DNA from: Streptomyces sp. NBC_00236
GTDB taxonomy: Bacteria; Actinomycetota; Actinomycetes; Streptomycetales; Streptomycetaceae
Assembly (NCBI RefSeq): GCF_036195045.1
Contig: NZ_CP108100.1
Span: forward strand, 7,502,001 to 7,566,000
Reading direction: 5' to 3'
DNA: 64,000 bases
A program made the translations under genes and the position numbers. Every line of letters starts with the position of its first letter. Positions within the stretch are counted from its first letter, which is position 1. Below are positions 55,067-64,000 of the stretch, piece by piece. The notes beneath the pieces are model-generated. The model was not told the DNA's origin. It worked only from the letters and a program-made list of their open reading frames with translations, and made no database searches.

Positions 55067-56008
55067 ATGCCCATATCGGGTAAGCACCGTCGTCCCAAGT
55101 CCAGCACCATTGCCCGTGGCGTCGTCGCCGCGAGCGCCGGCGGAGCCGTCATCGCGCTTCCGCTGCTCGGCGCCACCGGTGCCCACGCCGCGGAGCAGTC
55201 CGCTCCGGTCACCTCGAAGTCGGCCGCCGCTCACACCACCCCGGCCAAGCCGGTCGCGAAGAAGCAGGCCGGCGCCACCTCCTACACCGTGGTCTCCGGC
55301 GACTACCTGTCGAAGATCGCTGCCGAGCACAAGCTCAAGGGTGGCTGGGAGAAGCTGTACCAGGACAACCGCAAGGTCGTCGGCGACGACCCGAGCCTGA
55401 TCTTCCCGGGCATGAAGCTGACCCTCGGCGGCAAGGCCTGGGGCCACGCCTCGACCACCTCCACGGGCACCACCACCCCGTCGAAGGCCCCCTCCAAGGC
55501 CCCGGCCAAGACCGAGACGAAGGCCTCCACGGCCTCCGACTCGTCCTCCTCCGACGACTCGTCGTCCAAGGAGACCTCGGCGCCGGCCACCCAGAGCAAC
55601 GACTCCGGTTACGTCCACCCGGTCCCGGGCAACCACACCACCGCGTACCGCGCCTCCGGTGCCAACTGGTCCAGCGGCAGCCACACCGGCATCGACTTCC
55701 CCGTGTCCACCGGCACGAGCGTGAAGGCGATCACCTCCGGCACCGTCGTCACCGCCGGCTGGGGCGGCGCGTACGGCAACGAGGTCGTCATCAAGCACGC
55801 CGACGGCCACTACTCGCAGTACGGCCACATGTCCTCGCTCTCCGTCTCGGCCGGCCAGACCGTGACCGCGGGCCAGCAGGTCGGCCTGTCCGGCTCCACC
55901 GGCAACGCCACCGGCCCGCACCTCCACTTCGAGGTCCGCACGGGTCCGGCGTACGGCTCGGACATCGACCCGATCGCCTACCTGGCGTCGCACGGCATCA
56001 ACGTCTGA
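55067..56008 (+). CDS. secreted LysM-M23 family peptidoglycan endopeptidase
   Basis: A 313-residue cell-wall hydrolase. A signal peptide comes first (PISGKHRRPKSSTI, hydrophobic core, cleavage near AHAAE). A LysM module (about 65-120: TSYTVVSGDYLSKIAAEHK) binds peptidoglycan. A Thr/Ser/Lys-rich linker (about 130-180) follows. The M23 domain has HTGIDFPVSTG (HxxxD zinc site) and GPHLHFEVRTG (HxH). It cuts peptide cross-bridges during growth or germination. Expression is likely controlled by the c-di-AMP riboswitch in its leader. Confidence 0.95.
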   Translation: MPISGKHRRPKSSTIARGVVAASAGGAVIALPLLGATGAHAAEQSAPVTSKSAAAHTTPAKPVAKKQAGATSYTVVSGDYLSKIAAEHKLKGGWEKLYQDNRKVVGDDPSLIFPGMKLTLGGKAWGHASTTSTGTTTPSKAPSKAPAKTETKASTASDSSSSDDSSSKETSAPATQSNDSGYVHPVPGNHTTAYRASGANWSSGSHTGIDFPVSTGTSVKAITSGTVVTAGWGGAYGNEVVIKHADGHYSQYGHMSSLSVSAGQTVTAGQQVGLSGSTGNATGPHLHFEVRTGPAYGSDIDPIAYLASHGINV

Positions 56009-56270: not shown

Positions 56271-57107
56271 GTGGCAGACGATTCGAACAACATCCAGCAG
56301 GGCGTCATCAACCAACAGGGCGCCATCGGGTCGTACGCGGCGATTGGCGACAGCTTCACCGAGGGAGTCGGTGACCCCGGCCCGGACGGAACGTTCGTCG
56401 GCTGGGCGGACCGGTTCGCGGTCCTTCTCGCGGACCAGCTCCCGGACCCGGGCGCGGCGACGGGCACCGCTCACGCAGACTTCAGGTACGCCAATCTCGC
56501 CGTACGAGGACGTCTCCTCGACCAGATCGTCGAGGAGCAGGTGCCGCGCGCCAAGGAACTCGCCCCCGATCTGGTGAGCTTCTGCGCCGGCGGCAACGAC
56601 ATCATCCGGCCGGGCACCGATCCCGACGACGTGGCCGAGCGCTTCGAGCGCGCGGTCGCCGACCTGACCCGGTCGGTCGGCACGGTCATGGTCACCACCG
56701 GCTTCGACACCCGCAACGTGCCCGTGCTGCGCCATCTGCGCGGCAAGATCGCCACCTACACCGCGCATGTACGGTCCATCGCCGACCGCTACGACTGCCC
56801 GGTCCTCGACCTGTGGTCCCTGCGCTCGGTCCAGGACCGGCGCGCCTGGGACGACGACCGGCTGCACCTGTCGCCCGAGGGCCACACCCGGGTCGCGCTG
56901 CGCGCCGCCCAGGTCCTCGGCCTCGGCGTACCCGCCGATCCGGACCAGGAGTGGCCGCCGCAGGCCCAGCGCGGAACGCTCGAAGTGCGGCGCGACGACA
57001 TCCACTGGGCACGCGAGTACCTGGTCCCGTGGATCGGCCGGCGGCTGCGCGGTGAGTCCTCGGGGGACCACGTGGAGGCCAAGCGGCCCGACCTGCTGCC
57101 TCTCTGA
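56271..57107 (+). CDS. SGNH/GDSL hydrolase (cytosolic)
   Basis: A 278-residue esterase/lipase-like enzyme. Block I is AIGDSFTEGVGD (catalytic Ser), block III FCAGGNDIIRPG (Asn) and block V DDRLHLSPEGH (Asp/His). There is no signal peptide, so it acts inside. The GTG at 56271 adds a polar leader (ADDSNNIQQGVINQQG); an in-frame later start just before the IGSYAAIGDS block is possible. The upstream 186 bases contain an AT-rich patch that could be its promoter. Substrate unknown. Confidence 0.9.
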   Translation: MADDSNNIQQGVINQQGAIGSYAAIGDSFTEGVGDPGPDGTFVGWADRFAVLLADQLPDPGAATGTAHADFRYANLAVRGRLLDQIVEEQVPRAKELAPDLVSFCAGGNDIIRPGTDPDDVAERFERAVADLTRSVGTVMVTTGFDTRNVPVLRHLRGKIATYTAHVRSIADRYDCPVLDLWSLRSVQDRRAWDDDRLHLSPEGHTRVALRAAQVLGLGVPADPDQEWPPQAQRGTLEVRRDDIHWAREYLVPWIGRRLRGESSGDHVEAKRPDLLPL

Positions 57108-57121
57108 GAGGCTCGCAGTCC

Positions 57122-58009
57122 TCAGTCGCCCCGGGCGAACGGGGCGACGGAGGACACCGGCCGCGCCGGTATGCGCTCCAGCACTCCGCCGGCGAAGACG
57201 TCGTAGAGCGGCAGCGTCTCCAGGTGCACATAGCCGATGTGGCAGTCGCAGACGGCGAGCGGACAGGCCCGGGGACCCAGCGCCGCGCGGTAGCTGCCGT
57301 CGTAGAGATTGCCGAGCTCCGCGCGGACGAAGTGGCAGCGGCGCACCGTGCCGTCGCCGTCCACCGAGATCACCGACTCACCGGTCCGGCAGGGCAGCCC
57401 CGCCGAACGGTGCGGATGCCGGCTGTACGGGAACAGCGGGTCGACCGCCGTCCACCGGTCCGCCTCCTCGTCCGTATAGGTGTGGCCCTCGGCGGCGTTG
57501 ACCCAGAGGTAGACCTGCTCGGGCAGCGCCGCCCGCAGCCGTCGCGCCTCGTCGAGGTGGCCGTCGAGGCCGACGATTCCCACGCTGTGGCGGATCCCCA
57601 GAGCCACCAGCTCCTCACACCGCCCGAGGAAGCGTTCGTACGGTGTCTGGCCCGGGTGGTACGTGCACCAGAGCGCGATCTTGTCGCGACCGGCGGCACC
57701 GGCCGAGGCCAGCCACTGCGTACGTCCGCCGAGGTTCGTCTGGATCGCCACCCGCTGGACATGCGGGAGCCGGGCCAGCTCGACCACCGCACGGCGGTAC
57801 CAGGAGCGGACCAGCCCTTCGCCCCAGGGGGTGAACAGCACCGAGATCCGGTCAGCGCTCTGCGCCGTCACCCACGCCGTGAAGCGCTCCAGCGCGGCCC
57901 GGTCGGCCCGCAGCTGTTCCCGGCTGTCGCGGCGCTTGGCGAACGGACAGTACGGGCAGTCGTAATCGCACGACGCGAGCGGACCGCGGTAGAGAATCGT
58001 GAGGTCCAT
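57122..58009 (-). CDS. STM4011-type radical SAM protein
   Basis: A 295-residue radical SAM protein, last in a six-gene operon. The cluster motif is CDYDCPYCPFAK (C14, C18, C21). A C-terminal group of five cysteines (C207, C225, C249, C254, C256: GLPCRTGE, RRCHFVRAE, ACPLAVCDCHIG) resembles a SPASM-like auxiliary cluster domain. Auxiliary clusters are typical of radical SAM enzymes acting on peptides, though other substrates exist. It lies seven bases downstream of the STM4012-like gene. The family has no assigned reaction that I know of. Confidence 0.85.
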   Translation of the reverse strand: MDLTILYRGPLASCDYDCPYCPFAKRRDSREQLRADRAALERFTAWVTAQSADRISVLFTPWGEGLVRSWYRRAVVELARLPHVQRVAIQTNLGGRTQWLASAGAAGRDKIALWCTYHPGQTPYERFLGRCEELVALGIRHSVGIVGLDGHLDEARRLRAALPEQVYLWVNAAEGHTYTDEEADRWTAVDPLFPYSRHPHRSAGLPCRTGESVISVDGDGTVRRCHFVRAELGNLYDGSYRAALGPRACPLAVCDCHIGYVHLETLPLYDVFAGGVLERIPARPVSSVAPFARGD

Positions 58010-58016
58010 GCGGGGC

Positions 58017-59381
58017 TCACTTCAGCTCGTACGCGGCCATCGCGGCCCGTACGGCAGGGGAGAAGAGATCGGGGCCCAGCGCGTCGGAGTGGGCGAGTCC
58101 TTCGGGCGACAGGCGCAGCAGGCCGGTGGCCGACGCGTCGCGGTCGAGCCAGCCCCGGGCGTCGAACCGGGCGAGCTCCTCGGCGAAGTCCTCGTCCGGG
58201 TCCGTACCGAACCGCTCGCCGTACTCGGCCACGCGCAGCCCCTCGGCCTGCAGGACGGACTGCAGGAGATGGCGGCGGCGCGCCTCGTCGTCGTCGGTGA
58301 ACCGGCCCACCTCGGCGTGCGAGAAGTCCTCGGTGGCGGTGTAGCCGTCGATGATGGCCCGCACCTCACGCATCTCCACCGCGTAGTCGAAGGAGTAGTG
58401 CAGCCGCGACGTGTACGAGCGGGCGCCGCAGCCCAGGCCGATCATGCCGTCGGTCTGGCAGGCGTGGTCGTCCGGGCCCCCGGCCCGCGGGGCGTCGGCG
58501 CGGCGGAACATCCGCATGGACACCTGCTCGTAGCCGCGGGCGAGCAGGTGATCGCGGCCGGCCCGGTACAGCCGCAGCCGCTGCTCGTCCCAGGCCGCGT
58601 CCGCCGCGGCCTCGTCGGCGGCTCCGAGCCGGCCCAGCCCGGTCAGAGGACGGACGTAGAGCGGGTAGAGGTACAGCTCCTCCGGCCGCCACTGGAGCGC
58701 GGCGTCCAGCGAGGTGCGCCAGCTCCGCTCGGTCTGGCCGTCGATGCCGTAGATCAGGTCGATGTTCAGGACCGGGATGCCGCTGTCCCTGATCAGGCCC
58801 AGGGCCGTCTCCACATCGGCGCGCCGCTGCGGACGGACTGCCGCACGGGCCTCGGCCTCGACGAAGCTCTGCACACCGATGCTGATCCTGGTCGTCCCCC
58901 GGTCCGCGAGGACGGCCAGCCGGTCGGCCGTCGCGGTCGACGGCGAGGTCTCCACGGAGAGCGGCACGGACCGCAGATCGGCGCCCATGCGCTTCTCCGC
59001 GATGTCGCACAGTCGCTCCAGCTCACCCGCGGTCAGGAAGGTCGGCGTGCCCCCGCCGAACGCGGCCGCGGCGAAGCGCACCGGTTCCCCGTCGCCCAGC
59101 GCGTCCCGGACGGCGGTCGCCTGCCGGTCCAGCGCGTCGAGGTAGCGGGTGGTCAGCTCGTCGGGCGCGCCGATGCGTGTGAAGAGGTTGCAGAAGCCGC
59201 AGCGGACCTCGCAGAAGGGTATGTGGAGGTAGAGCGAGAGCGCGTCCTTGCTCTCGCCCGCCCACAGGTCACTCAACGCGGGCCGCCCGCCCGGGCGCCC
59301 GGAGAGCCTGCGGTACGCCGTCTTGTGCGGGTAGGCGTAGACGTAACTCTGGTACGGGCGGGTGGTGTGCGGACTGGTCAT
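58017..59381 (-). CDS. STM4012-type radical SAM protein (HemW/HemN-like)
   Basis: A 454-residue radical SAM protein of the coproporphyrinogen-oxidase/HemW branch. The motif is LYLHIPFCEVRCGFCNLFTR (C57, C61, C64 plus the extra Cys-x-Phe-Cys pattern), with AAFGGGTPTFLTAGELERLC for SAM binding and RISIGVQSFVEAEARAAVRP. A GLGCGARSYTS block and a C-terminal helical part match HemW-like proteins. It starts at the ATG at 59381, four bases overlapping the STM4013-like gene. It is distinct from ordinary HemW by its context and N-terminus. Confidence 0.88.
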   Translation of the reverse strand: MTSPHTTRPYQSYVYAYPHKTAYRRLSGRPGGRPALSDLWAGESKDALSLYLHIPFCEVRCGFCNLFTRIGAPDELTTRYLDALDRQATAVRDALGDGEPVRFAAAAFGGGTPTFLTAGELERLCDIAEKRMGADLRSVPLSVETSPSTATADRLAVLADRGTTRISIGVQSFVEAEARAAVRPQRRADVETALGLIRDSGIPVLNIDLIYGIDGQTERSWRTSLDAALQWRPEELYLYPLYVRPLTGLGRLGAADEAAADAAWDEQRLRLYRAGRDHLLARGYEQVSMRMFRRADAPRAGGPDDHACQTDGMIGLGCGARSYTSRLHYSFDYAVEMREVRAIIDGYTATEDFSHAEVGRFTDDDEARRRHLLQSVLQAEGLRVAEYGERFGTDPDEDFAEELARFDARGWLDRDASATGLLRLSPEGLAHSDALGPDLFSPAVRAAMAAYELK

Positions 59382-60250
59382 CGTGCGGTGGCTCCCGGCT
59401 CCAGGAAGAAATGCGCGTACGGAACGGTCCAGACCGACTCGTGACCGAGCCGGTGGCCGGTGTAGCCGTCGTCGCCGTACGCCGTGCCGTGGTCGGAGCA
59501 GACGATGGCGAAGGCGCGGCGGCGGCTGCTCGCGGCGGCGAAGAGGCGCCCGATGTGGGCGTCCACGTACTCCAGCGCGGCCGCGTGGGTGGCGCGGCTG
59601 TCGCCCGCGTCGCGGGTGGCCCCCGGCCGGTGGAACCAGTTCGGCTGGTGCAGCGCCGACACGTTGACGAAGAGGAACAGCCGCTGACCGTCCGGGAGCT
59701 CCCGGACGACCTGCTCGGCGCGGGACACCTGCGCCTCGAACGACGTGGGCGAGGCCACGCCGAACTCCGGCTCCCAGTGCGCCTCCTGGAACAGCCCGGG
59801 CAGCACCGAGCCGAGCGGTGCCTGCCGGTTGAAGAACCCGACGCCGCCGATGCACACCGTGCGGTATCCCGCACCGGCGAGTGCCGAGACCAGATCGGGC
59901 GCATCGAAGACGAAGGTGCGCTCCGCCGTGGTCTCACTGCCCGCGAAGCGTGCGGCGAACAGCCGGGGATGCGGTCCGGGAGCGGCCGGGGTGGGCAGGA
60001 ACCCCGCGAAGATCGCCTGGTGGGAGGCGTAGGTGAAGCTCCCCGGGGCATGCCGCTCCTCCCAGACGCCGCCGGGCAGATGCCGGGCCAGATTCGGGAT
60101 GCGCCCGTCGGCGGCGAGCTCCACCGCGACGTCGTACCGCAGCGTGTCCAGAGTGACGAGGAGCAGATCGTGGCTGCCCACGACCTCGCTCATGTCGGGG
60201 GCGACGGCGTCCGTGCGGTCGGAGGGTGGTTCAGGATGTTGCGCTGACAC
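59378..60250 (-). CDS. STM4013-type hydrolase (alkaline phosphatase/sulfatase superfamily)
   Basis: A 290-residue protein of the alkaline-phosphatase fold. The first metal Asp and likely Thr nucleophile are in LLVTLDTLRYDVAVE. The second metal site is CSDHGTAYGDDGYTGHRLGHES, with His and Asp ligands. No signal peptide is present, so it acts in the cytoplasm. It starts at GTG 60250 with AAGGAA five bases upstream, overlapping the ATP-grasp gene by 20 bases. It likely removes a phosphate, phosphonate or sulfate group from the pathway intermediate. Confidence 0.85.
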   Translation of the reverse strand: MSAQHPEPPSDRTDAVAPDMSEVVGSHDLLLVTLDTLRYDVAVELAADGRIPNLARHLPGGVWEERHAPGSFTYASHQAIFAGFLPTPAAPGPHPRLFAARFAGSETTAERTFVFDAPDLVSALAGAGYRTVCIGGVGFFNRQAPLGSVLPGLFQEAHWEPEFGVASPTSFEAQVSRAEQVVRELPDGQRLFLFVNVSALHQPNWFHRPGATRDAGDSRATHAAALEYVDAHIGRLFAAASSRRRAFAIVCSDHGTAYGDDGYTGHRLGHESVWTVPYAHFFLEPGATAR

Positions 60251-61373
60251 GGTGGTTCCTTGTTCGGTTCAGTACGGCGGCGACCTGCGCCGCGTAGGTG
60301 TCCAGGCCCTCGGCGCCACTGCCCGGCAGACCGGTCAGTCGCGGCAGCAGGTCACCGAAGGCGTTGACCTCGCCGACGGCGAAGCGCCGCCAGCCGGTGG
60401 CGGGCAGCAGGTCGACGCCCACGCACAGCATGTCCGGGAAGGCGGCGGCCGCCCTCTCGCACACGGCCAACGCCTCGCTCCAGCTCCCGCCCGCGGCTTC
60501 GACGGCGGCCCGCACCTCGTCGAGATCGCCGCGCGCACCGCCGAGGTGCAGGTTGGTCATGGGGGAGCGGCTGGTACGAACGACCGCATGAGTCGCGCGG
60601 CCGTCGACCACCACCACCCGCAGATCCGCGATCCGGCCCCGCTGCGAGGCCTTCGGCAGCCAGCGTTCGATGTGCAGACCGTCCGGCGCGAGTGCGTCGA
60701 CGATCGCCGCGACCTCGCGCTCGGTGGTGAGGCGGCGGACCCGGAGCGAGTTGTAGAGCCGGCCGGCCGGGTCCCGCTCGACCGAGGTGGCCGCCCGGAT
60801 CCGGCCGGGGCCGGCCGTCTCCACGGCCATCACCCCGGAGGCGGAGGACCCGTGCGCGGGCTTCACGAACACGCGTGGCATCCGGTGCCCGGCCATCAGC
60901 GCACGCACATCCGCCCAGCCCCGCACCGGACGCGCGCCCGGTCCCGACGTCGGTGAGGCGGGTACGGGGATGTCCGCGGCGTCCAGGACACCGTGGCACA
61001 GACGCTTGTCGAACAGCACCGCGATGTCGGCGGGTCCGTCCAGCAGAAGCGCGCCGGCCGTCGACGCGGCCCGTGCCACGTCCCTCACGGCGGAGGTGAA
61101 CCGTGCGTACCAGAGGGCAGAGCCCTCCACCCGCGTCGGATCGTCGACCCCGCGCAGCAGGTGGTCGACCTCCGGATCCTCGCCCGGCGAGTCGATGCGC
61201 ACGGTCTCCCCCGGCAGGAAGTCCGCCTCGCCCTTCAGCACGTCGAGCCAGGACACCGTGCGGGCCCGCGGCAGCCCGGCGGCGCGCACGGCGTCCTGGA
61301 AGAGGCCGGTCCGGCGGCTGCCGGGATTGCCGACGACCGCCAGACGCGGCGAGCTACTCGCCGACGGCGACAT
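60231..61373 (-). CDS. STM4014-type ATP-grasp protein
   Basis: A 380-residue protein with an ATP-grasp fold. Lys-containing ATP lobe: RVFVKPAHGSSASGVMAVE. Middle: DLRVVVVDGRATHAVVRTS. Mg-binding end: CVGVDLLP, then AVGEVNAFGDLLPRL with the Glu and Asn ligands. ATP-grasp enzymes join a carboxylate to an amine or thiol through an acyl-phosphate. The start at 61373 (MSPSASSSPRLAVVGNPGSR) overlaps the downstream end of the LRR gene by 20 bases. The pairing with two radical SAM proteins recalls peptide-modifying pathways. Confidence 0.85.
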   Translation of the reverse strand: MSPSASSSPRLAVVGNPGSRRTGLFQDAVRAAGLPRARTVSWLDVLKGEADFLPGETVRIDSPGEDPEVDHLLRGVDDPTRVEGSALWYARFTSAVRDVARAASTAGALLLDGPADIAVLFDKRLCHGVLDAADIPVPASPTSGPGARPVRGWADVRALMAGHRMPRVFVKPAHGSSASGVMAVETAGPGRIRAATSVERDPAGRLYNSLRVRRLTTEREVAAIVDALAPDGLHIERWLPKASQRGRIADLRVVVVDGRATHAVVRTSRSPMTNLHLGGARGDLDEVRAAVEAAGGSWSEALAVCERAAAAFPDMLCVGVDLLPATGWRRFAVGEVNAFGDLLPRLTGLPGSGAEGLDTYAAQVAAVLNRTRNHRVSATS

Positions 61374-62328
61374 AGCGGGGCTCGTCGTCCTCGGGGTCCC
61401 AGTAGTCCGCCGCGCCGAGATCGACGTGAACACCCTCACGGGCGCCCATCTCCCGGACCCGGGACATCACCGGATCGGTGAGGTAGTGGTGGTGCAGGTC
61501 CAGCGACGTCAGATGGGTCAGCGGCTGGCCGTCGAGCAGCGCCAGGGCCCCGGCGTCGCTGAGCGTCCCCATGGCGAGCGAGAGCGACTCCAACTGCGCG
61601 ACGACCGGAGCCGACGCCACCGCTGCGGCGATCTCGTCCTGGATCTCGCTGTTCTGCAGACCGAGATGGCGCAGCCGGGGGAAGGAGCCGCCGGAGAGGA
61701 CAGGGCTCATGTCCTCCACCGTGGCGTCGCCGCCGTACCACGTAGCGCCGAACCAGAGCTCCAGCCGCTCCAGAGCGGGCAGTTCGCTGGCACCGACCGC
61801 CCTGACGACATGGCCGGGCAGCCCCCCGGACTCGAACCTCAGCGACTTCAGGGCCAGATGCCGCACCGGTCGCAGCTGCAGCTTCTCCTTCTCGGGGACG
61901 GCATCCCCGCCGCCGCGCACCACCAGCTCCTCAAGGCGTGGAAACGCCTCGATCAGCGAGGTGACGTCCGACATCTCCAGCCAGGACACCTCGCACTCCT
62001 CACCGACGACATCGGCGAGGAACAGCGCGCGCAGCGCCGGGAAACGGCCCGCGTGCGAGGCGACCAGCTCTGCCACAGGGGCGAAGGAGCTGTACTCCTC
62101 CGGCCACCAGGGACCGATCAGCAGGGCACGTACCTCGGCAGGGTCGACCGTGTCGAGGAAGTGCTGCCAGAGTCCCGGGAACGCAGGCCCCTCCCAGGCA
62201 CAGTCCAGCCGCCAGGCCACGGACCCCGTCCCGGGCAGCGCCGCCGGGGCCGAACCGTCCTCGGCCGGCACCGGCAGGGTGAAGACGGGAAGACCGTGGA
62301 ACGTCTCGGGGTGCTCGATATCCGTCAT
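61354..62328 (-). CDS. STM4015-type leucine-rich-repeat protein, copy 1
   Basis: A 324-residue soluble protein with leucine-rich repeats from about residue 130 on (FPRLEELVVRGGG, LPALERLELWFGATW, FPRLRHLGLQNSEIQDEIA, VAQLESLSLAMGTLSDAG, LTHLTSLDLHHHYLTDP). The N-terminal 120 residues form a conserved non-repeat domain (HGLPVFTLPVP, VRALLIGPWW). There is no signal peptide or transmembrane segment. It is clearly paralogous to the next gene. LRRs usually bind protein, so it may be a scaffold or a substrate of the enzymes. Function unknown. Confidence 0.87.
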   Translation of the reverse strand: MTDIEHPETFHGLPVFTLPVPAEDGSAPAALPGTGSVAWRLDCAWEGPAFPGLWQHFLDTVDPAEVRALLIGPWWPEEYSSFAPVAELVASHAGRFPALRALFLADVVGEECEVSWLEMSDVTSLIEAFPRLEELVVRGGGDAVPEKEKLQLRPVRHLALKSLRFESGGLPGHVVRAVGASELPALERLELWFGATWYGGDATVEDMSPVLSGGSFPRLRHLGLQNSEIQDEIAAAVASAPVVAQLESLSLAMGTLSDAGALALLDGQPLTHLTSLDLHHHYLTDPVMSRVREMGAREGVHVDLGAADYWDPEDDEPRYVAVGE

Positions 62329-62335
62329 TGCGCCC

Positions 62336-63289
62336 TCACTCCGACACCGTGACGTACCGGCCCGCAGCCCCGCGGTCGCCCCACGGCTCGCAGCGCTCCG
62401 ACAGGTCCACCCGCACGCCGTGCGGCTCCAGGGTCTCCGTGACCCGGCGCTCCATCGGCTCGGTGAGGAAGTGGTGGTGCAGATCGAGGACGTCGAGATG
62501 TGTCAGCGGCTGCCCCTCCAGCAGCGCCGCCGCCCCCTCGTCACCGAGGGTGCCGCAGGACAGGTCGAGGGTGCGCAGTCGTGCCACGAGCGGGGCCGAG
62601 GCGACGGCGGCCGCGATCTCGTTCTCCACCTCGCTGTTGCGCAGGCCGAGATGGTGCAGGGCCGGGAATCGCGTCCCCGACAGCAGTGGGGCGAGATCCG
62701 CGACATCGGTGTCGCCCCCGTAGGCGGAGACCCCCAGCCAGAGGTCGAGCCGCTCCAGGGCGGGCAGTTCACTGTCCAGCACCCCGCGCACGACCTGCAC
62801 CGGCAGCCCGCCGGTCTCGATGGTGAGAGAACGAAGCCGCTCGTGCTTCGTGGCGGGGAAGACGAGCTCGGAACCGCCGCGTACCCCGAGCTCCACCAGC
62901 GCGGGAAAGGCGGTGAGCAGTGCGGTGACATCGCTCTGCTCGATCCAGGAGATCTCCGCCTCCTCCATCGTCAGATCGCCGACGAACACGGCTTCCAGCG
63001 ACGTCAGCCGCTCGGCGGCGGCGATCACGAGACCGATCGGGTACGACGACTTCTCCTCGTACGACTCGCCCCACTGCCCGATGATCAGCGCGCGGACACC
63101 GGCCGGGTCCACCTCCTCCAGGAACGCGGCGAACTCCTGCTCCCAGGTACGGTCCTCGTCCTCGTACGGCTCGACGAAGACGCGCCAGGCCGCCGCGTCG
63201 GCGGCCGGCCGGGAGCTGTCGTTCGACCCGGACTGGAAATCGACGGCCGGAAGGCCGAGCAACTCGTGCAGGTGGTCCACATCGGACAT
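62336..63289 (-). CDS. STM4015-type leucine-rich-repeat protein, copy 2
   Basis: A 317-residue paralogue of the previous gene with the same plan (HLHELLGLPAVDFQS start, VRALIIGQWGES, then repeats FPALVELGVRGGSEL, LPALERLDLWLGVSA, FPALHHLGLRNSEVENEI, VARLRTLDLSCGTLGDEG, LTHLDVLDLHHHFL). The start at 63289 has CAGGAG upstream and is the first gene of the operon. Seven bases separate it from copy 1. Tandem duplication is obvious from the matching C-termini (RYVAVGE and RYVTVSE). Confidence 0.88.
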   Translation of the reverse strand: MSDVDHLHELLGLPAVDFQSGSNDSSRPAADAAAWRVFVEPYEDEDRTWEQEFAAFLEEVDPAGVRALIIGQWGESYEEKSSYPIGLVIAAAERLTSLEAVFVGDLTMEEAEISWIEQSDVTALLTAFPALVELGVRGGSELVFPATKHERLRSLTIETGGLPVQVVRGVLDSELPALERLDLWLGVSAYGGDTDVADLAPLLSGTRFPALHHLGLRNSEVENEIAAAVASAPLVARLRTLDLSCGTLGDEGAAALLEGQPLTHLDVLDLHHHFLTEPMERRVTETLEPHGVRVDLSERCEPWGDRGAAGRYVTVSE

Positions 63290-63463
63290 GGCCCTGAGCT
63301 CCTGATGACGGCGACGGTTGATGTCCGCAAGGTCTATCAAGGCCCACTGACAACGGGACGACCGGCCCCGCCCGCCGACGCTCACCGGCCGATTGTCAGA
63401 CCCCCGCCGTAGCGTTTTCCACGTGGCCGGCACAGCGGGTGCCGCCGCGGAGGGGAGACGTCT
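63290..63463. promoter_or_regulatory. divergent promoter region of the STM4011-4015 operon and the small unknown gene
   Basis: This 174-base space separates the starts of the leftward operon and the rightward gene. It must hold at least the leftward promoter. I see no clear consensus box on either strand. Confidence 0.55.
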
Positions 63464-63790
63464 GTGTACCGGCAGGGCGACGTACTGATCATGGCGCTGG
63501 AGGAGTCCGCGGTGCCCGCGAACCTCCTGGAGGCACCGGGCGAACTGCGCGACGGGCGCGGCCGGCTGGTGCTCGCGCTCGGCGAGGTCACCGGACACGC
63601 GCACGCGGTGCCGGGGCCGGGCCGGCTGATCAGGGAGGGCGGGGTGTTCGGCCCGATGCTGCTCCACCTCCCCGACGGCGGGCGCGTGGTGCATGAGGAA
63701 CACGCGGTGATCTCGCTGCCGAAGGGCTGGTTCCGGGTGGTGCGCCAGCGCGAGTACACACCGGGGGCGTTCCGCGTCGTCGCGGACTGA
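63464..63790 (+). CDS. small protein of unknown function
   Basis: A 108-residue beta-rich protein I do not recognise. It begins MYRQGDVLIMALEESAVPANL and has GEVTGHAHAVPGPGRLIREGGVFGPM and VVHEEHAVISLPKGWFRVVRQ. The latter has the look of a small barrel with His residues (HAH, HEEH) that could bind a metal. The GTG start at 63464 has GGAGGGGAGA just upstream. Such proteins lie directly before DUF6745-like genes in Streptomyces, so the two may act together. Confidence 0.75.
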   Translation: MYRQGDVLIMALEESAVPANLLEAPGELRDGRGRLVLALGEVTGHAHAVPGPGRLIREGGVFGPMLLHLPDGGRVVHEEHAVISLPKGWFRVVRQREYTPGAFRVVAD

Positions 63791-63860: not shown

Positions 63861-64000
63861 ATGCAGTACGTGGACTCATGGCGGGCCGTGGCGGCGGCGA
63901 CCGGTGCGGCGGACCGGGCGGCGGCCGAGGAGGGGGTGCGGCTCGCCTACCGCAGCGCGGGCCTGGCCGAGCCGGTGGAGTTCGTGTGGGCGGATTCGCC
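63861..64000 (+). CDS. DUF6745-like protein, N-terminal part (partial at window end)
   Basis: Only the first 46 residues are in the window (MQYVDSWRAVAAATGAADR, then AAAEEGVRLAYRSAGLAEPVEFVWADS). The Trp-Arg start and helix spacing resemble the start of actinobacterial DUF6745 proteins. It follows the small unknown gene by 70 bases. The function is unknown and the call rests on a short stretch. Confidence 0.6.
   Translation, partial: MQYVDSWRAVAAATGAADRAAAEEGVRLAYRSAGLAEPVEFVWADS

What the first reader, a model, noticed from the sequence alone, without database searches (positions are those of the whole stretch)
57122..63289. Six-gene STM4011-STM4015 operon: candidate undescribed enzymatic pathway
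Two radical SAM proteins (one with SPASM-like extra cysteines, one HemW-like), an alkaline-phosphatase-fold hydrolase, an ATP-grasp protein and two leucine-rich-repeat proteins are packed with gaps of at most 7 bases or overlaps of 4-20 bases. Such tight coupling of radical, ligase and hydrolase enzymes with protein-binding repeats looks like a complete pathway for a peptide, protein or small molecule. The family names come from Salmonella and, to my knowledge, no reaction has been assigned. No precursor peptide gene fits between the genes, so the LRR proteins or a distant peptide may be the substrate.
Basis: partly seen in the sequence, partly recalled or inferred. Interest (0 to 1): 0.9.

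Follow-up and report, generated by a model that had tools for sequence, protein, structure and literature searches.

The report
LRR-protein tail modification gene cluster
This operon and a neighbouring divergent gene pair look like a widespread but unstudied bacterial system in which leucine-rich-repeat proteins carry a strongly conserved tail ending in glutamate that the co-encoded ligase and radical enzymes probably modify.

Summary
In detail: all six genes pass the STM4011-STM4015 NCBIfam cut-offs, with the stated spacing. In Streptomyces, 75 of 77 genomes with strong DUF6745 also have STM4014, nearly always next to it. STM4014 never occurs there without STM4015 (88 both, 0 alone, of 199 genomes). 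No function was found in the held literature.

New finding: the LRR proteins (STM4015) end in a variable acidic linker plus RYx[AS][VLI]xE-COOH; 140 of 155 representatives end in Glu, and the other four core families show nothing similar. STM4014's predicted fold is closest to ArgX/LysX and RimK, ligases that act on a protein's C-terminal Glu. STM4015 ends in Glu in 98 of 104 proteins from genomes with STM4014, but in 3 of 9 from genomes without. STM4011 resembles a twitch-domain peptide maturase; STM4012 resembles HemN/NocN.

Best reading: the LRR tail is the substrate or attachment site of STM4014, and the radical enzymes work on it. The chemistry, the attached group and the biological role are not shown.

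The parts
62336..63289 (-). STM4015a, 317-aa LRR protein, first gene of the operon
62339..62359 (-). codons of its C-terminal tail RYVTVSE (proposed modification site)
   Evidence: sequence; family conservation
61354..62328 (-). STM4015b, 324-aa LRR protein, second paralogue
   Evidence: NF038076 365.8 bits
61357..61377 (-). codons of its C-terminal tail RYVAVGE
   Evidence: sequence
60231..61373 (-). STM4014, ATP-grasp ligase of the LysX/ArgX/RimK fold class
   Evidence: NF038074 462.3 bits; Foldseek and VIA-align of the AF2 model
59378..60250 (-). STM4013, alkaline-phosphatase-superfamily enzyme (start possibly 60193)
   Evidence: NF038075 423 bits; invariant D35, T73, H201, D230, D253, H254, H266, H270; NPP/sulfatase/PEtN transferase profile matches
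58017..59381 (-). STM4012, HemN/NocN-like radical SAM protein
   Evidence: NF006067 635.9 bits; 1olt E 6.2e-56, NocN 9p2u E 6.6e-35
57122..58009 (-). STM4011, radical SAM protein with five extra invariant Cys (C207, C225, C249, C254, C256) besides C14/C18/C21
   Evidence: NF038073 411 bits; SkfB 6efn E 0.0012
63290..63463 (.). 174-base divergent intergenic region
63464..63790 (+). 108-aa protein of unknown family, first gene of the divergent pair
   Evidence: matches only phrog_27831 of unknown function; 1309 homologues
63861..64000 (+). start of the DUF6745 gene (continues beyond the window; L039:1861-2862)
   Evidence: PF20530 385.8 bits; neighbour of STM4014 in Streptomyces

Best explanation
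The cluster is a protein-anchored modification system whose substrates are the STM4015 leucine-rich-repeat proteins. Shown: these proteins end in an acidic linker of variable length plus RYx[AS][VLI]xE, the terminal Glu being the most constant residue of the tail. Inferred: STM4014, an ATP-grasp ligase of the LysX/RimK class, activates the terminal Glu carboxylate with ATP and joins it to an amine (an amino acid or another building block). STM4012 (HemN/NocN class) and STM4011 (twitch/SPASM class) then carry out radical chemistry on the attached group or on the tail. STM4013, a metallo-phosphoesterase-type enzyme with a probable Thr nucleophile, removes or transfers a phosphate-type group. The LRR body, present as one to several paralogues per genome, is the recognition part. 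DUF6745 and the small protein are accessory in some lineages. Whether the product stays on the LRR protein (a matured protein) or is released (a carrier pathway, as with LysW) is open.
Confidence: 0.55

Rival explanations
1. The tail is only a docking peptide or an intramolecular latch. STM4015 is a scaffold or sensor that binds and organises the enzymes, which together make or modify a separate small molecule.
For: Tail pLDDT about 87 after a looser linker; the C-terminus of 2ra8 is modelled and aligns with it; co-loss of tail and body residues E112, W115, G160 would also fit an intramolecular contact; STM4014 has small-molecule ATP-grasp relatives such as DcsG and glutathione synthetase close behind.
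Against: A pure docking peptide does not obviously need a free terminal Glu at the exact end across eight or nine phyla; the top structural relatives of STM4014 act on protein or peptide carboxylates.
Confidence: 0.22
2. The enzymes act on a soluble metabolite (for example a phosphorylated, haem-like or inositol-phosphate-like compound) without any protein-bound step; STM4014 is a kinase or small-molecule ligase and the LRR proteins respond to the product.
Against: Does not explain the terminal Glu or its loss in 6 of 9 proteins without STM4014; STM4012 fails the HemN, HemW and HutW cut-offs.
Confidence: 0.13
3. A classical RiPP pathway with a short precursor peptide encoded elsewhere in the genome.
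For: Radical SAM with extra cysteines plus an ATP-grasp enzyme is a RiPP-like pair (PMC8939145, PMC8326336; passages).
Against: No room for a peptide gene in the operon; the 174-base gap was read in one frame of one strand only. The conserved candidate tail is on the LRR protein itself.
Confidence: 0.05
4. A defence or competition system in which the LRR paralogues recognise invaders.
For: Patchy distribution (91 of 199 Streptomyces over the STM4015 cut-off; 154 of 5426 E. coli), several LRR paralogues in some genomes, WGR domains on some.
Against: PADLOC gives only a weak match of STM4012 to PDC-M51A, 24.8 bits, and none for DUF6745 or the small protein. I recognise no nuclease or pore among the families.
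Confidence: 0.05

Closest known systems
STM4011-STM4015 families (NCBIfam NF038073, NF006067, NF038075, NF038074, NF038076)
   Same: All six genes pass the curated cut-offs; same order as the Salmonella and E. coli loci.
   Different: Two STM4015 genes instead of one, and a divergent DUF6745 pair; Salmonella and E. coli have a HAD hydrolase gene instead. The families have names but no assigned reaction that I found.
Amino-group carrier protein systems (LysW with LysX/ArgX; PMC9303977, passages)
   Same: Protein with a C-terminal Glu; ligase of the same fold, best VIA rows ArgX-LysW and LysX.
   Different: STM4015 is a 317-aa LRR protein, not LysW-like; no recognised release enzyme; radical SAM enzymes instead of the LysZ-type steps (recalled).
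RimK and ribosomal protein S6/RpsF (PMC10092738, PMC7343187; passages)
   Different: STM4014 is far below the RimK-family cut-off (24 against 143.4 bits); no poly-Glu evidence; other partners.
Graspetide ligase PsnB (PDB 7drn, 7drm, 7dro, 7drp)
   Same: Top Foldseek match of STM4014, a ligase acting on peptide carboxylates.
   Different: No graspetide precursor; 14-22% identity level overall; TM by query about 0.5.
SkfB and other twitch/SPASM peptide maturases
   Same: STM4011 has C-x12-G-x4-C plus three more invariant Cys and matches SkfB residues 324-396 (E 0.0012).
   Different: Only that C-terminal stretch matches; no small peptide precursor.
PDB 2ra8, Q64V53 of Bacteroides fragilis
   Different: Extra N-terminal part (the related Bacteroides protein L038 has a WGR domain there); a structural-genomics entry described as uncharacterised.

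Membership tests
STM4011-STM4015 cluster | each protein passes its NCBIfam cut-off | tested here: met
   six of six proteins
STM4011-STM4015 cluster | conserved order STM4015-4014-4013-4012-4011 | tested here: met
   window; 52 of 53 Paenibacillaceae loci, 9 of 27 other loci, 5 of 8 plasmid records in strict order
Amino-group carrier protein system (LysW/LysX) | carrier ends in a conserved Glu | tested here: met
   140 of 155 representatives
Amino-group carrier protein system (LysW/LysX) | carrier is a LysW homologue | tested here: not met
   STM4015 is an LRR protein; no LysW-type Pfam or NCBIfam match
Amino-group carrier protein system (LysW/LysX) | ligase of the LysX fold class | tested here: met
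   (fold class only)
Amino-group carrier protein system (LysW/LysX) | isopeptide formed on the terminal Glu | not testable with these tools
   needs mass spectrometry
RimK family | passes the RimK-family model TIGR00768 | tested here: not met
   24 bits against 143.4
Graspetide biosynthesis | short precursor peptide encoded with the ligase | tested here: not met
   none fits between the operon genes
SPASM/twitch radical SAM | CX3CX2C plus extra conserved C-terminal Cys | tested here: met
   three core and five extra invariant Cys
SPASM radical SAM | full seven-Cys SPASM motif | tested here: not met
   five extra invariant Cys only; the seven-Cys motif is recalled
HemW | passes TIGR00539 | tested here: not met
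   124.9 bits against 205.4
HemN | passes TIGR00538 | tested here: not met
   128.7 against 324.95
ChuW/HutW | passes TIGR04107 | tested here: not met
   138.5 against 400
Known anti-phage systems | convincing PADLOC match | tested here: not met
   one weak match (STM4012, PDC-M51A, 24.8 bits); none for DUF6745 or the small protein

The most novel reading that the evidence does not exclude
STM4015 is a new kind of protein carrier: a leucine-rich-repeat protein whose C-terminal Glu is charged by STM4014 and holds a building block while two radical SAM enzymes and a phosphoesterase-type enzyme remodel it, giving an unknown protein-bound cofactor or released metabolite in eight or more bacterial phyla, with several LRR paralogues in some genomes sharing one charging machinery.
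Probability: 0.28. Interest if true: 0.92.

Novelty: new variant of a known kind. Interest (0 to 1): 0.74.

Why it matters
The STM4011-STM4015 genes occur in about half of the sampled Streptomyces, in scattered members of at least seven other phyla and in a minority of E. coli, yet I found no assigned function. A specific residue, the terminal Glu of the LRR proteins, turns an unknown operon into a one-step mass-spectrometry test. If the tail is charged, C-terminal-Glu ligase chemistry (LysW, RimK) extends to LRR proteins and is coupled to radical SAM chemistry; I know of no such case (recalled; the literature searches were limited to open-access papers).

Tried and rejected
(1) Small precursor peptide: none fits in the operon; the 174-base divergent gap was translated in one plus-strand frame only and starts with an open stretch continuing from upstream. 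(2) An Arg-Tyr crosslink in the tail (such a radical-SAM macrocycle appears only as a cited reference in PMC8326336): possible, but several lineages keep the Glu without the Arg-Tyr pair. (3) Haem salvage: STM4012 fails the HemW, HemN and HutW cut-offs. (4) Defence: only one weak PADLOC match among the eight proteins tested. (5) ORFs between cluster genes in other lineages: not searched further. (6) Tail on other proteins: a degenerate pattern searched in five genomes gave 13 matches, no more than its reversed control (14), so the count itself shows nothing. Of the 13, seven end STM4015 ORFs, one ends a 184-aa ORF, three end ORFs of 60, 23 and 15 aa, and two do not end in a stop; the control hits were not looked at in the same way. 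The pattern also misses tails with other residues at -4, such as STM4015a of the window. (7) STM4011 and STM4012 gave no convincing profile match to each other. (8) Literature: searches. The two papers that name STM4013 or STM4015 list them in tables (passages). PMC4431377 held none of the terms asked for; PMC4275035 mentions WGR and LRR fusions of other families (passages). The 2009 amidoligase survey of Iyer et al. is not held, so an earlier mention of this operon there cannot be excluded. (9) VIA-align listed no graspetide ligase in the 50 rows shown although Foldseek ranked PsnB first; that excludes nothing.
Full report
Observation. The window is part of an 8.33-Mb single-contig genome; the genus Streptomyces is inferred from the best named hits. 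The six minus-strand genes at 57122-63289 are real, tightly packed and belong to the STM4011, STM4012, STM4013, STM4014 and STM4015 (twice) families above their cut-offs.

What was missed. A divergent pair starts 174 bases from the operon: a 108-aa protein (63464-63790 +) and a DUF6745 protein from 63861 + that leaves the window. Among 199 Streptomyces genomes, strong DUF6745 matches (E below 1e-100) occur in 77. Of these, 75 have STM4014 over its cut-off; in 73 of the 75 both are on one contig, and in 72 of those within 6.3 kb. The other two are G919, whose STM4014 match is partial, and G1026, where a partial STM4011 match overlaps DUF6745 on the other strand. Thirteen of 88 STM4014-positive genomes lack strong DUF6745. 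Weaker DUF6745 relatives occur in a further handful of genomes. In the 88 named loci L031-L038 and L040-L119 both genes of the pair lie in the stretch in eight: Streptomyces, Hamadaea, Nonomuraea, two Deinococcus, Methylobacterium and two Chloroflexota; none in 53 Paenibacillaceae loci. The pair is accessory, not core.

Conservation. The order STM4015-4014-4013-4012-4011 is found in 52 of 53 Paenibacillaceae loci, in 9 of 27 other genome-contig loci and in 5 of 8 plasmid records; all five families are present in 52, 17 and 6. The rest are contig ends, STM4013 alone, degraded copies, or rearranged (in L094, L105, L107 and L112 STM4014-STM4015 lie on the other strand). Record titles of loci with all five families cover Actinomycetota, Bacillota, Cyanobacteriota, Chloroflexota, Myxococcota, Planctomycetota, Pseudomonadota and Deinococcota; L038 (Bacteroides) is a degraded copy.

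Frequencies. STM4013 is over the cut-off in 6 of 296 genomes drawn across the phylum. STM4015 is over the cut-off in 91 of 199 Streptomyces, 3 of 199 in the phylum of a planctomycete, 4 of 194 in the phylum of a cyanobacterium, and 0 of 193 in the phylum of a myxobacterium, where 64 nevertheless have matches below E 1e-40. DNA resembling the Salmonella copy occurs in 154 of 5426 E. coli genomes, all chromosomal, 94 of them covering at least 80% of the query. In the two E. coli loci opened it lies between ompL and typA with a Cof-type HAD gene at the end, as in the Salmonella record.

Co-occurrence of STM4014 and STM4015. Streptomyces: 88 both, 0 STM4014 only, 4 STM4015 only, 107 neither (the partial STM4015 of G957 counted as present, two weak matches, G941 and G1024, as absent). 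Myxobacterial draw: 60, 0, 4, 129 (STM4015 counted below E 1e-40, STM4014 over its cut-off). Fisher tests are extreme, but genomes are related, so the p-values overstate.

The tail. STM4015 proteins end in an acidic linker (37-57 residues lie between the last conserved LRR position and the C-terminus) and a conserved end. Over all fetched loci, 221 of 238 unique proteins and 140 of 155 representatives (at most 80% identical) end exactly in Glu; 138 of 155 have Arg at -7 and 140 of 155 Tyr or Phe at -6. The last residue of the other four core families carries at most 1.5 bits, against 3.6-3.75. Against over-reading: the small protein (12 of 12 representatives end in D) and DUF6745 (12 of 14 in T) also have constant ends. 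What sets STM4015 apart is a constant end behind a variable linker. The Glu is kept where Arg-Tyr is not: Salmonella, Bacteroides, L111, L115, L274, L279 and E. coli. A tail pattern searched in five genomes gave 13 matches against 14 for the reversed control; seven of the 13 are STM4015 ends, and only one other ends an ORF over 100 aa.

Coupling of tail and ligase. In genomes with STM4014, 98 of 104 unique STM4015 proteins examined end in Glu; in genomes without detected STM4014, 3 of 9 do (p 2.6e-5; L263 and L232, broken or partial clusters, were left out). The six without Glu come from three Streptomyces (G917, G958, G982) and three genomes of the myxobacterial draw (G862, G863, G892); the three with Glu come from G715 and G878. 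All five non-Streptomyces genomes are in short contigs (4-27 kb), so a missed STM4014 is possible in any of them, and their STM4015 matches are weaker (about 150-230 bits). Ten of 13 extra copies away from the operon in STM4014-positive Streptomyces keep the tail. Proteins without the Glu also lost E112 (0 of 10 kept, against 114 of 135), G160 (2 of 10, 122 of 135) and W115 (2 of 10, 118 of 135); with score-matched controls E112 is 0 of 10 against 30 of 48. I read this as a patch linked to the tail; some of the tail-less proteins are close kin of one another, and divergent cyanobacterial, myxobacterial and orphan Streptomyces proteins with the tail also lack E112.

Mechanism. Shown: the gene set, its conservation, the tail, its association with STM4014, and the fold class of STM4014. 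Inferred: Glu activation and amide formation by STM4014; radical chemistry by STM4012 and STM4011 on the attached group or tail; phosphate-type chemistry by STM4013; the LRR body as recognition platform. Known parallels act on protein C-termini: amino-group carrier proteins use a C-terminal Glu (PMC9303977, passages), and RimK adds glutamates to the RpsF C-terminus (PMC10092738 and PMC7343187, passages). Matured protein or released metabolite is undecided; I put 0.28 on the carrier reading.

Comparison and novelty. As a gene set this is a known, named but uncharacterised cluster. As a mechanism it would be a new variant of C-terminal-Glu ligase systems. It is not filed as LysW, RimK or graspetide, because defining features tested here fail (LRR carrier, RimK cut-off, no precursor peptide). 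In the held open-access library I found no paper that assigns a function; PMC3844500 and PMC2784778 list STM4013 or STM4015 in tables (passages). Older subscription papers, such as the 2009 amidoligase survey, could not be read.

Noticed in passing
L252 (5971-8055 -), L254 (5695-6894 +), L256 (4892-5983 +): Streptomyces STM4015 paralogues without the Glu tail share another C-terminal end, [IS]xVGP[VL][ST]Y (REICVGPVSY, PSISVGPLTY, PNISVGPLSY): perhaps a second kind of tail.
   Followed up: no
L325 (6852-10271), L260 (447-3388), L035 (7753-9916): STM4013-like paralogues outside the cluster: L325 and L260 have a MoaA-like radical SAM gene nearby, L325 and L035 a NUDIX gene, and L035 an annotated lasso-peptide B2 gene: a second context that links this hydrolase with radical SAM enzymes.
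   Followed up: partly
L031, L318, L319: Salmonella and E. coli clusters end with a Cof-type HAD-IIB hydrolase gene that overlaps or abuts STM4011.
   Followed up: partly
L324 (G1026:C81): DUF6745 in a Streptomyces genome without STM4014 or STM4015, overlapped on the other strand by a partial STM4011 match (178 bits): possibly a decayed cluster.
   Followed up: partly
L105 (G306) and L111 (G302): L105 is titled Comamonas, yet its 9.0-Mb genome was drawn within the phylum of a Myxococcus genome; L111 is titled Rhodococcus rhodnii but its genome is given as 12.4 Mb. The record labels look doubtful.
   Followed up: no
L094, L107, L038: Myxobacterial and Bacteroides STM4015 proteins carry an N-terminal WGR domain; some genomes have many matches to the STM4015 model (14 in G308, several of them weak LRR hits).
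   Followed up: partly
window 56271-57107 (+) and 55067-56008 (+): Downstream neighbours: a GDSL lipase/acylhydrolase, convergent with STM4011, and an ORF that by eye looks like a LysM plus M23 peptidase (not searched).
   Followed up: no
L120-L244 and other fetched loci: The small protein and DUF6745 have strikingly constant C-termini of their own (VxD and [EQ]T), unexplained.
   Followed up: no
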